From IMG/VR virus record IMGVR_UViG_3300032053_000559, positions 1 through 22,723 of that record: DNA of 22,723 nucleotides; one strand, 5' to 3'. This document shows positions 1-7,809 of this stretch, piece by piece. The position numbers and the translations under genes were made by a program. Numbering within the stretch: the stretch's first letter is position 1; each line of letters starts with the position of its first letter. The notes under the pieces were generated by a model, which had not been told where the DNA came from, did no database searches, and saw only the letters and a list, made by a program, of their open reading frames with translations. The stretch is from a virus.

Positions 1-611
1 TCCGTCCCATGTAATTCTTCTTCTACTCCATTAACAACTTTCCAGAATTTTACATCAACTTTGACAGTTCCCGAACGAGTAGTGCTACCCGTACGTTCAA
101 TAAAATAATGAATGCCAGAGATCTCAAATTCAAGTTTGCATTTAAAGCTGGATTTTTGAACATTTAAAACATGGGAACCTTTATAACAACGAGAAGTTTT
201 ATCGAATAAACAAAATATTAACGTATCAAGTATAGATGAATTGTGAGATACTATACCATTAGAATAATATTGCGCAACCTCATCTACTTGAATATCATAT
301 AAATCCTTTCTATATTTTTCTTTAACTACACTACTAATACCAGAAATGCCATCGTTTGTCTGAATTTTGTCTCCGACTTTAATATTTTTTGTTTTTATGA
401 ATTTATTACCATCATTTCTTATAAGATGATCTGGAGAACATGATAATCTTTTTTTATTATTGGTTATTATAGAATAGACATTTGAGTTTTTTGCTGTAAT
501 ATCACATGCTGTTACATGTTTATATCCATATGGAGTATTAACTTTTATATCTAAATCTCCATACTTTCGAAATAGATTATAAATATTCTTTATTGTAACT
601 GATTTTTTCAT
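1..611 (-). CDS. Split-intein C-fragment fused to the ATPase (SbcC/Rad50/T4 gp46-like) C-extein, 3' end off the window
   Basis: This open frame starts at ATG 611 and is still open at base 1 (203 codons visible). Residues 1-124 read as the C-terminal part of an intein. Block B is SCSPDHLI (residues 57-64, with the usual Thr replaced by Ser), block F starts YDIQVDEVAQYY (from residue 105), and block G ends VSHN (121-124), giving the penultimate His and terminal Asn. From Ser125 the text changes to an SMC/Rad50-type ATPase N-lobe: SSILDTLIFCLFDKTSR follows a P-loop Lys in gp46/SbcC relatives. The polypeptide alone lacks GxxxxGK, so it needs the N-extein encoded at 1513-2829. A good Shine-Dalgarno (AGGA, 10 nt spacing) precedes the ATG, which lies 1 nt after the GIY-YIG stop, so this half is translated separately. 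Very AT-rich. The intein reading is firm; actual splicing activity is inferred. Confidence 0.92.
   Translation of the reverse strand, partial: MKKSVTIKNIYNLFRKYGDLDIKVNTPYGYKHVTACDITAKNSNVYSIITNNKKRLSCSPDHLIRNDGNKFIKTKNIKVGDKIQTNDGISGISSVVKEKYRKDLYDIQVDEVAQYYSNGIVSHNSSILDTLIFCLFDKTSRCYKGSHVLNVQKSSFKCKLEFEISGIHYFIERTGSTTRSGTVKVDVKFWKVVNGVEEELHGT
240..611 (-). other. Intein C-fragment (IntC, 124 aa)
   Basis: Sub-feature of the partial ORF at 1-611. It carries intein blocks B, F and G and ends His123-Asn124, with Ser as the first C-extein residue (codon 237-239). At 124 residues it is far longer than the roughly 35-40-residue IntC of canonical split inteins. It therefore contains everything after block A, as in the AceL-TerL class of atypically split inteins. 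No DOD/LAGLIDADG or HNH endonuclease domain lies inside it. Confidence 0.92.
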
Positions 612-612
612 A

Positions 613-1461
613 TTATACTTTTCCTATACACATCCATCCCTTAAACTTAGGTCTTATTCCCCGACATAATTCTGATATATGACCATAACTCAAATGAAAT
701 CGATCACATAAATCTTTTTGATATGTTTTTATTTCTCCAATTATATTATGATGGAATTTATAGTATCCACAAAAGAATGAATTTTTATCTCCTACTAATT
801 TTCCTTTATTTGACTCTGATATTTTTTGTTTTGTGTTTTCTAAACAAATTCGTCCTATATTAGATTTTTTGATTTTCTCCTTGGTTTCTATTGAATGATG
901 GGTTCCCGTGCGATTGTGTCCATAAATATTAATATGTTTTAATGCCGATATTCTCATTTTCTTTTTTATAACATCGGATAATGGCCCATGTTTTATTCCA
1001 ATGTGAGATTCTCTAAGTTTTTCTATAGTTTCCGCTCTTCGTTTAATTCCAAAATTTGTTCCACATATTGGAGCAATATTATATTCTGGATTAATTTTAT
1101 TCTTATAATATTGTTCTAATATTATACAATTGTAGTTATTACAGGTTTCTAATATTAAAAATCTAAAATTTATTTTATCATACTTATTCCACGCCCGCTG
1201 GAAAATAATAGAATGATGTTTATTTTTATGCAAATCATTAATATGACGCTTTATTCTTTTGTATAAATTGGTTGTTGACCCAATATAAGATTTATTATTG
1301 ATATTATTTACTATTTGATATACTCCTACTTTTATAGTATTTTTCCATTCGTTTTCGGTTAATTTTATCCCTGTGTCGGTAATAATATTCCAAATTCCGT
1401 TTTCGTTGAGCAACAATAAGTTCTTCATATGTATAATATTTTTTATATCTTCCCATAACAT
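613..1461 (-). CDS. GIY-YIG homing endonuclease with NUMOD-type C-terminal DNA-binding modules, inserted between the split-intein halves
   Basis: Free-standing GIY-YIG nuclease. Numbering from ATG 1461: G46-V-Y48 and Y59-I-G61 form the signature, R69/R72 lie in LYKRIKRH, and the catalytic Glu is E116 in ILEQYYKNK. The C-terminus has two NUMOD3-like repeats (around 192-203 and 209-220) and a helix-turn-helix-like tail (KDLCDRFHLSYGHISELCRG, 249-268) ending in KGW, as in intron- and phage-borne homing enzymes. The stop is 1 nt from the IntC ATG. The 5' end is uncertain. ATG 1461 is only 1 nt from the Shine-Dalgarno, whereas ATG 1456 of an overlapping frame is ideally spaced. Residues 1-44 do not look like a domain, so translation may begin at 1428 or reach this frame by a +1 shift from the mini-ORF at 1304-1456. 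The nuclease call is secure; the start is not. Confidence 0.88.
   Translation of the reverse strand: MLWEDIKNIIHMKNLLLLNENGIWNIITDTGIKLTENEWKNTIKVGVYQIVNNINNKSYIGSTTNLYKRIKRHINDLHKNKHHSIIFQRAWNKYDKINFRFLILETCNNYNCIILEQYYKNKINPEYNIAPICGTNFGIKRRAETIEKLRESHIGIKHGPLSDVIKKKMRISALKHINIYGHNRTGTHHSIETKEKIKKSNIGRICLENTKQKISESNKGKLVGDKNSFFCGYYKFHHNIIGEIKTYQKDLCDRFHLSYGHISELCRGIRPKFKGWMCIGKV
1304..1456 (-). CDS. Basic mini-ORF (50 aa) leading the GIY-YIG cassette, paralog of the mini-ORF at 6813-6950
   Basis: Overlaps the 5' part of the GIY-YIG ORF in another frame. It starts MGRYKKYYTYEE and contains a Lys/Arg/Tyr-rich helical stretch around NRKRMEKYY, with Shine-Dalgarno GAAGGA 6 nt before its ATG. 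It is real rather than a shadow because the unrelated HNH cassette at 6041 has the same kind of leader peptide (MGRKKKYDS, then a run ending RKRMDRYWRKKG), with matching spacing and a matching 5' untranslated sequence. A basic DNA-contacting peptide or the displaced N-terminal module of the endonuclease are both possible. If one base is skipped in TATAAAAGTAGG near its end, the frame runs straight into KVGVYQIVNN of the GIY-YIG domain. Function unknown. Confidence 0.65.
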   Translation of the reverse strand: MGRYKKYYTYEELIVAQRKRNLEYYYRHRDKINRKRMEKYYKSRSISNSK

Positions 1462-1483
1462 TTCCTTCTTTAATAAATATAAT

Positions 1484-1504
1484 CATCCAACAAAAAACAT
1501 CCAA
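1484..1504 (-). repeat. Direct heptamer repeat around TTTTTTG in the leader of the GIY-YIG cassette
   Basis: On the minus strand TTGGATG is followed by TTTTTTG and then by TTGGATG again. The same architecture with a different heptamer (TTCCGTG) occurs at 6978-6998 in front of the HNH cassette, at an equivalent distance from the mini-ORF start. It may be an operator for autoregulation or a relic of cassette insertion; which is not known. Confidence 0.6.
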
Positions 1505-1512
1505 CAAATATT

Positions 1513-2829
1513 TTATTTTAACTCCTCGGGTAAAAATCCTAATTTTTTTATTATTTCATCTTTATCATATTCTATGTCTATTTCAGTATTTTTATCTACA
1601 CATTTTCCGGATGCGTTTGGACCAAATATTCCATATACTCCGTTCATATTAGTAAAATCTATAACATTATCTTCACCAAATTTAAATGTATTTGACCATT
1701 CCATTTTTATAGGTTTCCATTTCAAATTACGAGGAAACTCGTCTCGTTTGATGAGAAGATTGGTATTCTTGTTAATGGTTAGAATATCATCCAATTTCTG
1801 TTGGTCTGTGATTTGTAATTTTTTCGTGATGAATTCCGTAATGAGACGACTTTGATAGTCAACATTTGTCAGATCCGTCAGAACAATATCCTTGCATAAA
1901 GGAATGATGTCTTTCTCATCTCGTTCTTGGTCCATCCTAACATAAGTAATTTCAACTACATTTGTCTTTTGTTTGATGTCTGCAATGACCAATTTTACTT
2001 CGGAAGCAATACTCTCGAAACACTTGACACGGAGGCGGACTTGCTTCGGCAATGAAGTCAAATCGGTAGTCAATTTTCCCTTTTGTACCTCAATAGTGAA
2101 ATAACCAAAATTATTGAGAACTTCGCAATGAGTATAAGTTCTTAAAGTTAAATCCCACAGGCTATATCCGTGACCTTTAAGAGATTCTCCATGATTTTGC
2201 ATGATAAGTGATCCGGGATAATGTATATCTCCCAATAATGCCATATCATGATAATCAAATAACGGAGGCATGATTGCGGGGTTACTGATAGAGTACCCAT
2301 TTTCTAATGATGCCTGATCTACTGTCCCATGAAATAATGCAATTGTATGCTCATATTGATTTCGATAGATGGCAGGAATATCTTTACCAAACATGTATTT
2401 ATCCGGGTCATCAAATATACTCATGTTATTGAATAGTATATTTCCCATTCCATATAATCCGGATGATTTGAGATAAAATAGGGTTGGGTGGTTTATTGCT
2501 TCTATGATAGGACTCAAACTATCCAATCTGTTTTTATTTGAAAGTATGGCATCGTGTTGTCCGGCTACGATAACAGTAGGACACATATTAGCACATTTGG
2601 TAAGAAAATAGGATAATAACTCTATACATTCTGGTTGCAAATCTATTTTTGAATGCAATAAATCTCCTACTATAACAATACACGTTTCTTCTTTCGGAAG
2701 CATTTCAATGTCTTTAAACAAGCGATTAAATACTTCTCGATACTCATCGTGTCTCTTATTAAGACGAATGTGTACGTCAGCCAAGTGTACTATTTTAGAA
2801 TATTTTTTATTTGCCGGCAATATTTTCAT
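1513..2829 (-). CDS. SbcD/T4 gp47-like nuclease fused to the start of an SbcC/gp46-like ATPase, ending in a split-intein N-fragment
   Basis: Residues 1-350 are a calcineurin-like Mre11/SbcD/gp47 nuclease. Metal-ligand motifs in order are D18-V-H20, G55-D56 with H59, H92-D93 in AGQHD (usual GNHD, Asn replaced by Gln), H167 in LFHGT, and G200-D-I-H203. From about residue 370 an SbcC/Rad50-type ATPase begins (MEWSNTFKFGEDNVIDF), reaching the P-loop GPNASGK at 403-409. Cys410 then opens an intein block A (CVDKNTEIDI), and the protein stops at 438, leaving a 29-residue IntN. The Walker A Ser/Thr is missing and is supplied by the polypeptide at 1-611 after trans-splicing. The start at 2829 overlaps the upstream endonuclease fragment by 23 nt and has no clear Shine-Dalgarno, suggesting coupled translation. 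The usual role is processing DNA ends for recombination-dependent replication. Nuclease-ATPase fusion and intein signature are seen; splicing is inferred. Confidence 0.93.
   Translation of the reverse strand: MKILPANKKYSKIVHLADVHIRLNKRHDEYREVFNRLFKDIEMLPKEETCIVIVGDLLHSKIDLQPECIELLSYFLTKCANMCPTVIVAGQHDAILSNKNRLDSLSPIIEAINHPTLFYLKSSGLYGMGNILFNNMSIFDDPDKYMFGKDIPAIYRNQYEHTIALFHGTVDQASLENGYSISNPAIMPPLFDYHDMALLGDIHYPGSLIMQNHGESLKGHGYSLWDLTLRTYTHCEVLNNFGYFTIEVQKGKLTTDLTSLPKQVRLRVKCFESIASEVKLVIADIKQKTNVVEITYVRMDQERDEKDIIPLCKDIVLTDLTNVDYQSRLITEFITKKLQITDQQKLDDILTINKNTNLLIKRDEFPRNLKWKPIKMEWSNTFKFGEDNVIDFTNMNGVYGIFGPNASGKCVDKNTEIDIEYDKDEIIKKLGFLPEELK
1516..1602 (-). other. Intein N-fragment (IntN, 29 aa)
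   Basis: Codons 410-438 of the nuclease-ATPase precursor. It begins with the nucleophile Cys (TGT, 1600-1602) directly after the P-loop Lys, continues CVDKNTEIDIEYDKDE and ends EELK before TAA. Only block A is present. Block B, with its conserved His, is in the separately encoded IntC at 240-611. Confidence 0.9.
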
Positions 2830-3028
2830 AAATGTGTTTTATAACGCTTTCTTCATCGAACTCATTTTCCTTTATACGAAGAAGCTTACATTTTAAGTAA
2901 GATTTTATTTCTTCTTCTCTTCTTTTGTCTTTTTCTCGCAAATTTCCATCTATATTATAGTGAGAGTTTTCATCCCATTCAATTACTATGTTTAAATTCG
3001 GTTCATAATAATCTACAAAATATCCCAA
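2807..3028 (-). pseudogene. C-terminal fragment of a Vsr-like (EDxHD-type, PD-(D/E)XK fold) homing endonuclease
   Basis: The frame opens at TTG 3028, with an in-frame TAA four codons upstream. It encodes 73 residues that read as the second half of a Vsr-like nuclease domain: GYFVDYYEPNLNIVIEWDEN, then a His, a charged helix LREKDKRREEE, and LKCKLLRIKE. This pattern is standard for free-standing phage homing endonucleases, but those normally carry 100 or more extra N-terminal residues. Here only the catalytic C-terminus remains, beginning 16 nt after the methylase stop. Its 3' end overlaps the start of the gp47-like gene by 23 nt, so ribosomes reading the fragment may deliver initiation to the next gene. 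A short functional protein cannot be excluded; a truncated relic is likelier. Confidence 0.7.
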
Positions 3029-6040: not shown

Positions 6041-6808
6041 TCAACATTTTATATGTTGAATTCGTTCCAGTTTTATTTCTCGAAGAACTTCCCCCATCCT
6101 AATCATTTCATCATAGGTAAATTTATTGCTTTTAATTCGGTTACAATTAGTACAACATACGACACAATTTTCTTTAATATATCCTATGTTATTATCCATT
6201 CTATCCAAATAATATGCCATTTTTCCATCTTTACCCGTATGTGCTTTCCATTTTATGACTTCATCACAATAATGACAATTTGTAATTTTAGTTAAAGTTA
6301 CGAAATCATCATAGGTCAACGTACATGCTCGGTTGGCGTCCTTAGCATTATATTTTAATACGTTAAATAACCATTCAAATGGTTTCTTGGATACTTGTTC
6401 TTTATGATAACACCCACAGCTTTTTGATAATCCTTCTCTTAAATTATACCCATCTACCACATCCTCTTTTCCACAACTACATTTACATAACCAGTTAGCA
6501 CATCCATTTTTAGCCTGCCCATTTATTCTTTTTAATACAGTCCACCGATTAAACGTTTTTCCGGTTATATCGATGTAATTGCCTGGTTTATAACAATTTT
6601 GACATAAAGTATTATTTCTAATAGAAGCATAATATCCGGCAGATGATTCGAATATCATTTCGTTTCCACAAACACTACATATCTTCACCCATTTCTTTTG
6701 AATTCCATCGATGTCACTATTTCGTTGTTTGATTTCTTTCTTATGTGTGTTATAATAAATGCGTTGGGCAATACGCCTTTGTCTATGATTTTCATCATCT
6801 ATAACCAT
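6041..6808 (-). CDS. HNH homing endonuclease with zinc-binding N-terminal modules
   Basis: The start is taken at ATG 6808 (255 aa), 4 nt after the stop of the basic mini-ORF; a longer open frame to 6994 exists but reads the mini-ORF out of frame. Cys pairs CSVC (44/47) and CQNC (69/72) form a first zinc ribbon. A second Cys cluster, CKCSCGKE with SKSCGC, follows the GKTFNRWTVLKRI module common in phage HNH/AP2-type proteins. The HNH part is CHYC (178/181), YYLDRMDNNIGYIKENC and CCTNCNRIKSNK, with Asp-Arg in place of the first His-containing pair, as in many phage enzymes. Residues 8-27 (HRQRRIAQRIYYNTHKKEIK) resemble the basic motif of the adjacent mini-ORF. It sits directly upstream of the primase, a typical conserved-gene target for homing. 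Confidence 0.88.
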   Translation of the reverse strand: MVIDDENHRQRRIAQRIYYNTHKKEIKQRNSDIDGIQKKWVKICSVCGNEMIFESSAGYYASIRNNTLCQNCYKPGNYIDITGKTFNRWTVLKRINGQAKNGCANWLCKCSCGKEDVVDGYNLREGLSKSCGCYHKEQVSKKPFEWLFNVLKYNAKDANRACTLTYDDFVTLTKITNCHYCDEVIKWKAHTGKDGKMAYYLDRMDNNIGYIKENCVVCCTNCNRIKSNKFTYDEMIRMGEVLREIKLERIQHIKC

Positions 6809-6812
6809 TCGT

Positions 6813-6950
6813 TTAACCTTTTTTCCGCCAATACCTATCCATTCGCTTTCGCAATATTTCTTCTCGATGCCGCTGATAATAGAGTTTGTCGTCTCTTCGC
6901 TTTGCTTCTCGTTGTTTATTAATGCTATCATATTTTTTCTTTCTTCCCAT
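6813..6950 (-). CDS. Basic mini-ORF (45 aa) leading the HNH cassette
   Basis: Reads MGRKKKYDSINKQREAK, then a Arg/Lys/Tyr-rich run ending RKRMDRYWRKKG. It is preceded by AGAAGG 8 nt before the ATG and followed after 4 nt by the HNH endonuclease start. It is clearly related in protein pattern, start context (TTATGGGAAGA) and leader to the mini-ORF at 1304-1456, although the downstream nucleases belong to unrelated families. Net charge is strongly positive and one amphipathic helix is likely. I infer a DNA-binding accessory or regulatory peptide; no named family is recognised. Confidence 0.7.
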   Translation of the reverse strand: MGRKKKYDSINKQREAKRRDDKLYYQRHREEILRKRMDRYWRKKG

Positions 6951-6977
6951 AATCGCGGCCTTCTTATAAGTATAATC

Positions 6978-6998
6978 CACGGAACAAAAAACACGGAA
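6978..6998 (-). repeat. Direct heptamer repeat around TTTTTTG in the leader of the HNH cassette
   Basis: On the minus strand TTCCGTG, TTTTTTG and TTCCGTG follow one another. It is the counterpart of the repeat at 1484-1504, with the same spacing and central T-run but altered heptamers (three central bases changed in both copies). Both lie about 28 nt upstream of a mini-ORF ATG. Confidence 0.6.
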
Positions 6999-7047
6999 TA
7001 CTTTACATATGATATTTGATTATGAAGCAGAATACAACTTATTTTAA

Positions 7048-7359
7048 CTATGACTCACATTCCACTTGTTCATTTAATCTTGAAATTAACATTGGAAGTG
7101 AAATTTCATACCACTCATGCCGAATAGATAACGCAAAAGGATTTATCATTTCCTTAATTTTTCTTTCGGCCACATATGCAGTTGGATGAAATACATAATG
7201 CTCGATTTTATAATTTCTATGTGGCGATGATGTTTGATAATTATTTATTCTACTCGAAACATTTTTTGTTACACCAACTTTGTAGAACCCGGGGAAATTA
7301 CAATTACTAACAATATATAAAAATCCAGATTTATTATTAATTTTTTTATTTTGTTTCAT
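7048..7359 (-). CDS. Small GIY-YIG-superfamily protein of the T5orf172/MUG113 type
   Basis: 103 aa. The GIY-YIG-like core is GFLYIVSN (12-19) and FYKVGVTKNVSSRINNYQ (25-42), with the conserved Arg in SSRINNY. The Glu position falls in YVAERKIKEM, and the HEWYEI ending is typical of T5orf172/MUG113 domains. It is probably a nuclease or nuclease-derived DNA-binding protein; whether it is a mobile endonuclease or a resident phage gene is unclear. It follows the SegE-like gene after 3 nt with no clear Shine-Dalgarno, so it is probably co-translated. Confidence 0.8.
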   Translation of the reverse strand: MKQNKKINNKSGFLYIVSNCNFPGFYKVGVTKNVSSRINNYQTSSPHRNYKIEHYVFHPTAYVAERKIKEMINPFALSIRHEWYEISLPMLISRLNEQVECES

Positions 7360-7362
7360 ATT

Positions 7363-7770
7363 TTATTTTTTATTTCTTATTCTAATATTACACACCTGAT
7401 TCCAATATTCATCCGAGAAAATTGCATTTCGATCTATAATCTCCTTGGTTTCAAAATAAGCAAGCAATAGTTTTGATTTGTGAAAATGAAGTATTTCAAA
7501 TTTAAAATTTTCCTTTCCATTTTTAATAATATATTCGTTAAGTTCCGGACTGCTTCCCGTATATTCTCTCCATAAACTTTCTTTTATTCCTCTTCGTTTA
7601 TTAATACGTCCTTTTAATGGTTTTTTACATGTTTTATTTATTAAAAGCTTTTTACCTATATATTTTTTATTATCCGAAACCCTGATAATACAATAAACAA
7701 ACCCAATACTATTCCCCGGTATTTCTACCATATTATCTGGTAATTTCCAATGCCCAAAATCAGTACTCAT
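7363..7770 (-). CDS. SegE-like GIY-YIG endonuclease-family protein
   Basis: 135 aa from ATG 7770 (MSTDFGHWKLPDN). A TTG at 7785 would add five residues inside the tail of the terminator, so the ATG is preferred. The core is GFVYCIIRVSDNKKYIGKK, then a Lys/Arg-rich stretch, the WREYTGSSPELNEYI motif, and NFKFEILHF with a later ETKEIIDRNAI carrying the candidate catalytic Glu. The whole pattern matches the SegE-like GIY-YIG family found across T4-like phages and cyanophages. It is the first gene after the virion-module terminator. Activity is inferred from family; many members are uncharacterised. Confidence 0.85.
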   Translation of the reverse strand: MSTDFGHWKLPDNMVEIPGNSIGFVYCIIRVSDNKKYIGKKLLINKTCKKPLKGRINKRRGIKESLWREYTGSSPELNEYIIKNGKENFKFEILHFHKSKLLLAYFETKEIIDRNAIFSDEYWNQVCNIRIRNKK

Positions 7771-7783
7771 ATACCATATGTAC

Positions 7784-7809
7784 AATAAAAAACCCGCAAA
7801 CGCGGGTTT
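7784..7809 (-). terminator. Intrinsic terminator ending the virion module
   Basis: Minus strand: stem AAACCCGC / GCGGGTTT (8 bp, perfect), loop GTTT, followed by TTTATT. It lies 5 nt after the stop codon of the 97-aa gene. It is the only canonical rho-independent terminator I can see in the window. Confidence 0.9.

What the first reader, a model, noticed from the sequence alone, without database searches (positions are those of the whole stretch)
1..2829. A fractured recombination nuclease-ATPase gene that must be rejoined by a split intein
Seen: the gp47/SbcD-like ORF runs into the gp46/SbcC-like ATPase, reaches GPNASGK, then reads Cys plus an intein block A and stops. About 900 bp further on, a new ORF carries intein blocks B, F and G, ends His-Asn, and resumes with SSILDTLIFCLF, exactly what follows the P-loop in Rad50/SbcC/gp46. 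Joining gives GPNASGKSS, a perfect Walker A. Known: split inteins in phage 'fractured genes' work by protein trans-splicing. Inference: the phage's end-processing/recombination ATPase is inactive until two polypeptides are spliced. I do not recall this host protein among the well-known split-intein hosts.
Basis: partly seen in the sequence, partly recalled or inferred. Interest (0 to 1): 0.95.

Follow-up and report, generated by a model that had tools for sequence, protein, structure and literature searches.

The report
Split intein in phage recombination ATPase
In this virus the gene for a DNA-end-processing enzyme is broken in two by a mobile element, and the two protein halves very probably have to be stitched together by a split intein before the enzyme's ATP-binding site exists; this kind of broken gene is known, but this enzyme appears not to have been reported as a host.

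Summary
On the minus strand, ORF A (2829-1513) encodes a gp47/SbcD-like domain, the start of gp46/SbcC up to the P-loop lysine (GPNASGK), then a 29-residue IntN. ORF B (611-3) encodes a 124-residue IntC ending in His-Asn, then SSILDTLIFCLF. Profiles built without the window find IntN (E=5e-18) and IntC (E=1e-48) at exactly these places. AlphaFold plus Foldseek give a Hint fold, closest to VidaL. Intein-less relatives read straight through GK-SS and encode a ~1070-aa single-chain Mre11-Rad50 fusion. Some 28 distinct environmental viral loci carry the same intein at the same site: contiguous in two, split without a nuclease in three, split around a nuclease-like ORF in about twenty. The window alone has a GIY-YIG endonuclease there. 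The intein tree conflicts with the host-gene tree, as expected for a mobile element; both fragments are under purifying selection. The kind (fractured gene, short-IntN split intein, P-loop site) is known, mostly from terminases; the gp46 host was not found in the papers searched. Trans-splicing itself is inferred, not shown. The window's nuclease domain looks damaged (GNHD to GQHD, loop deletion), and gp46 is cut off by the contig end.

The parts
1603..2829 (-). N-extein: gp47/SbcD(Mre11)-like domain fused to the start of gp46/SbcC(Rad50), ending at the P-loop GIFGPNASGK
   Evidence: ORF; PHROG SbcD-like 1.1e-8; NCBIfam SbcD residues 12-107 and SbcC residues 372-410, both below curated cut-offs; aligned with intact relatives
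1516..1602 (-). IntN, 29 aa, Cys1 start; stop codon at 1513-1515
   Evidence: window-free profile E=5.2e-18; 54-72% identity to same-site IntNs
613..1461 (-). GIY-YIG (I-TevI-like) homing endonuclease ORF, 282 aa, inside the fracture
   Evidence: Pfam GIY-YIG 1.2e-10; NCBIfam grpIintron_endo 7.3e-28, above cut-off
240..611 (-). IntC, 124 aa, ends His-Asn
   Evidence: Pfam PF14890; NCBIfam TIGR01443; window-free profile E=1.4e-48; AlphaFold pLDDT 90.5; Foldseek to VidaL
3..239 (-). C-extein: gp46/SbcC(Rad50) ATPase continuing from the P-loop Ser; truncated by contig end
   Evidence: PHROG exonuclease and SbcC hits; 76-88% identical across the junction to the closest intein-less relatives L002, L004, L006, L008-L012

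Best explanation
A phage single-chain Mre11-Rad50 (gp47-gp46) gene is interrupted, between the Walker A lysine and serine, by a mobile split-intein cassette: a short IntN (29 aa), a separately translated GIY-YIG homing endonuclease and a long IntC (124 aa). Two polypeptides are made (gp47 + gp46 start + IntN; IntC + rest of gp46). IntN and IntC associate into one Hint domain, which by class 1 splicing (Cys1, SxxH block B, His-Asn, Ser+1) joins the exteins and restores GPNASGKSS; before that there is no P-loop and no ATPase. The nuclease probably spreads the cassette to empty gp46 alleles. Shown: anatomy, homology, exact site, fold, mobility signature, selection. Inferred: association, splicing, inactivity before splicing, homing.
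For: Window-free profiles hit both fragments. Foldseek: window IntC and the contiguous homologue L110 both match VidaL, NrdJ-1 and gp41-1 inteins; CatC, which also has SxxH, matches by sequence. Intein-less relatives contiguous at the exact site. 37 same-site contigs, about 28 distinct, including contiguous inteins in L100 and L110 that show how the pieces join. dN/dS 0.07-0.2 for IntN and 0.05-0.24 for IntC in close split pairs; 0.2-0.4 for the window against L091-L093. Intein and extein trees disagree: the window extein groups with intein-less L002 and kin (95*), its intein with loci whose exteins are mostly 25-42% identical.
Against: No protein data. gp46 beyond 79 residues is not in the contig. 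The gp47 motif GNHD reads GQHD and a loop after GDIH is missing, and Pfam Metallophos hits relatives but not the window, so the enzyme may be partly degraded. A second ORF overlaps the endonuclease start in another frame, so the endonuclease gene may not be intact.
Confidence: 0.9

Rival explanations
1. Decayed intein: the element was once an intein but the split copy no longer splices, and the phage uses another end-processing enzyme.
For: The gp47 half of the window has a changed metal-ligand motif and a deletion; the GIY-YIG ORF has an odd double-frame start.
Against: All catalytic positions are present, both reading frames are open, and split homologues are under strong purifying selection; a frameshift in either piece is not seen.
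Confidence: 0.06
2. RNA-level joining: a group I or II intron with its endonuclease lies inside a contiguous intein or gp46 gene.
For: The endonuclease family is typical of group I introns.
Against: Rfam finds no intron. The endonuclease stop is one base from the IntC ATG and the IntN stop is 51 bases before the endonuclease ATG, leaving no room for an intron core. Relatives with gaps of 27-96 nt are split in the same way.
Confidence: 0.02
3. Genes in pieces without splicing: the two halves assemble non-covalently, as reported for a phage ribonucleotide reductase split by an endonuclease gene.
For: The gp47 part of the same gene is fractured in this way in L002, L013, L016 and L084 with no intein.
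Against: Here both ends carry conserved intein halves with all splice-junction residues, and the break lies inside the P-loop, where non-covalent repair is implausible.
Confidence: 0.02

Closest known systems
Fractured genes with split inteins and free-standing endonucleases (Dassa et al. 2009, doi 10.1093/nar/gkp095; paper not held, from memory and citations)
   Same: Host gene cut in two, split intein halves at the break, endonuclease gene between
   Different: Host is gp46/SbcC (here a natural gp47-gp46 fusion); endonuclease in the window is GIY-YIG
AceL-TerL, GOS-TerL and Cat short-IntN split inteins (PMC11766414)
   Same: Short IntN of 25-37 aa and long IntC of 104-115 aa; phage ATPase host
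   Different: Those have Cys at +1 and sit in terminase; here Ser or Thr +1, in gp46; IntC about 33% identical to CatC in the Foldseek alignment
VidaL intein (PDB 6vgv)
   Same: Closest solved structure by sequence (5.5e-7) and by fold
   Different: Only 26-27% identical; host protein of VidaL not checked here
AceL NrdHF class 3 split intein (PMC7891396)
   Same: Fractured phage gene with an intervening GIY-YIG endonuclease
   Different: Class 3, canonical split site (98 + 48 aa), ribonucleotide reductase host
T4 gp46/gp47 and SbcCD/Mre11-Rad50
   Same: Host protein family
   Different: Single-chain fusion in relatives, interrupted here by the intein

Membership tests
Intein (class 1) | Hint fold | tested here: met
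   AlphaFold and Foldseek on window IntC and on contiguous homologue L110
Intein (class 1) | Cys or Ser at position 1, block B histidine, terminal Asn, Cys/Ser/Thr at +1 | tested here: met
   Cys1 and terminal Asn invariant, block B His62 invariant (SPDH in the window), +1 Ser or Thr in all
Intein (class 1) | Excision with ligation of exteins | not testable with these tools
   needs protein experiments
Split intein / fractured gene | Two separate ORFs carry the halves, with a stop and new start between | tested here: met
Split intein / fractured gene | Endonuclease gene in the break | tested here: met
   GIY-YIG ORF 613-1461
Split intein / fractured gene | Intein-less alleles contiguous at the same site | tested here: met
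Short-IntN (atypical) split inteins | IntN of about 15-40 aa with long IntC | tested here: met
   29 + 124 aa
gp46/SbcC/Rad50 host | Walker A restored on joining | tested here: met
   GPNASGK + SS; contiguous in relatives
gp46/SbcC/Rad50 host | Zinc hook, signature and Walker B | tested here: inconclusive
   CxxC hook and signature-like motif present in intact relatives, weak Pfam SbcC Walker B hit in L006; the window ends before them
gp47/SbcD/Mre11 nuclease | Intact metallophosphoesterase motifs | tested here: not met
   GNHD reads GQHD and a loop after GDIH is absent; no Pfam Metallophos hit

The most novel reading that the evidence does not exclude
The cassette gates the enzyme that its own spread may need: gp46/gp47 are listed as possible participants in T4 homing (PMC2988022), so trans-splicing in the P-loop could time or couple recombination to the mobile element, and the series contiguous, split without endonuclease, split with different endonucleases shows how split inteins arise and swap endonucleases in nature.
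Probability: 0.2. Interest if true: 0.75.

Novelty: new member of a known kind. Interest (0 to 1): 0.6.

Why it matters
It adds a new host, the Mre11-Rad50-type recombination ATPase of phages, to the short list of naturally fractured split-intein genes, and supplies about 28 distinct short-IntN inteins, most of them split, as candidate protein-ligation tools. The same site occurs empty, with a contiguous intein, split without an endonuclease, and split with different endonucleases, so the origin of split inteins can be studied in one gene.

Tried and rejected
RNA intron: Rfam search negative. Cellular homologues: genome-contig scan found none. Annotated phages with the same insertion: the listed intein matches are terminase, RecA/UvsX, PhoH and RFC-like proteins or unannotated, none seen in gp46, though not all 300-odd records were listed. 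Relatives of the window's endonuclease in other split inteins: eight loci, none with this intein. The Dassa 2009 paper is not held.

Full report
What is there. All features lie on the minus strand at the start of a 22,723-base virus contig. ORF A (2829-1513) is 438 aa. It matches SbcD-like phage nucleases and, weakly and below curated cut-offs, SbcD at residues 12-107 and SbcC at residues 372-410. It reaches GIFGPNASGK, continues CVDKNTEIDIEYDKDEIIKKLGFLPEELK and stops. A GIY-YIG endonuclease ORF follows (1461-613). One base after its stop, ORF B begins (611-3): 124 aa ending YYSNGIVSHN, then SSILDTLIFCLFDK... until the contig ends.

Is it an intein? Pfam and NCBIfam intein models hit ORF B. 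Profiles built from relatives without the window hit IntN (E=5.2e-18) and IntC (E=1.4e-48) at exactly 1602-1516 and 611-240. The AlphaFold model of the window IntC (pLDDT 90.5) and that of the naturally contiguous homologue in L110 (pLDDT 88.7) both match solved inteins, VidaL first. Cys1, block B His, terminal Asn and a Ser/Thr at +1 are conserved.

Is the site exact? In intein-less relatives (L002, L004, L006, L008-L012 and others) the reading frame runs through GK-SS without interruption. Six of seven intact copies examined are single ORFs of 1066-1104 aa encoding a gp47-gp46 fusion, and the five closest carry a zinc-hook CxxC and mostly a signature-like motif. The closest annotated phage is Microcystis phage Mel-JY01, with one fused protein.

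How common? A profile scan of viral contigs found 33 same-site loci and an IntN scan added four, about 28 distinct after removing evident duplicates. A scan of bacterial and archaeal genomes found none. States: contiguous (L100, L110); split with a gap of 27-96 nt and no ORF (L099, L103, L104); split around an ORF of about 324-441 aa in about twenty; split around an unrelated 141-aa ORF (L116); split around a 69-aa zinc-finger remnant (L091). Two of the large ORFs tested match phrog_22677 (unknown function), one with weak DUF559 similarity; the L093 ORF had no clear family. I read them as EDxHD-like endonucleases, which is inference. The window is the only one found with GIY-YIG.

Is it mobile and selected? 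The window's exteins group with intein-less L002 and relatives (95*), while its intein groups with inteins of L091, L092, L093, L137 and L139; L137 shows a second conflict (quick method, some long branches). Extein identity of the window to L091 and L093 is 25-42% while IntN is 61-72% and IntC 52-58%. Among close split pairs dN/dS is 0.07-0.2 for IntN and 0.05-0.24 for IntC.

Mechanism. By analogy with known class 1 split inteins, the two translated pieces associate, splice, and form the P-loop; before splicing the Walker A serine is on another chain. The endonuclease probably drives homing into empty alleles. These steps are inferred.

Caveats. gp46 is incomplete here. The gp47 half has GQHD instead of GNHD and lacks a loop after GDIH at the place where the same gene is fractured by endonuclease genes in L002, L013, L016 and L084. 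This may be a scar, and nuclease activity may be reduced.

Comparison. Fractured genes with split inteins, short-IntN split inteins (PMC11766414) and GIY-YIG in a fractured gene (PMC7891396) are all known. No paper in the searched library reports gp46, SbcC or Rad50 as an intein host; subscription papers and the original fractured-genes paper were not available. I therefore call it a new member of a known kind, with a new host family.

Noticed in passing
window 1603-2829 (gp47 part, minus strand): Metal-ligand motif GNHD reads GQHD and the loop between GDIH and YPGSL is deleted, unlike the full-length relatives aligned; possible scar of an endonuclease insertion.
   Followed up: partly
L002 4354-6624, L013 2927-4803, L016 134-2067, L084 5953-7700: gp47 is fractured near GDIH by an endonuclease gene with no intein; the first piece has a new tail, in three of the four of the form ELxxYLxxGWxxD.
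   Followed up: partly
window 1304-1457, minus strand: A Lys/Tyr-rich 50-aa frame (MGRYKKYYTYEEL...) overlaps the start of the endonuclease ORF in another frame; L124 has the same arrangement.
   Followed up: partly
window 2807-3028, minus strand: 73-aa ORF with DUF559 similarity, likely an endonuclease remnant overlapping the gp47 start.
   Followed up: no
L085, L086, L087: Inteins at the P-loop of other large-phage ATPases: RecA/UvsX-like (SCTP-2), PhoH-like split with an intervening ORF (LR756500), RFC-like (LR756508) (names from sequence reading).
   Followed up: partly
window 6041-7785, minus strand: Three more endonuclease-like ORFs: HNH, and two with matches to endonuclease families.
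   Followed up: no
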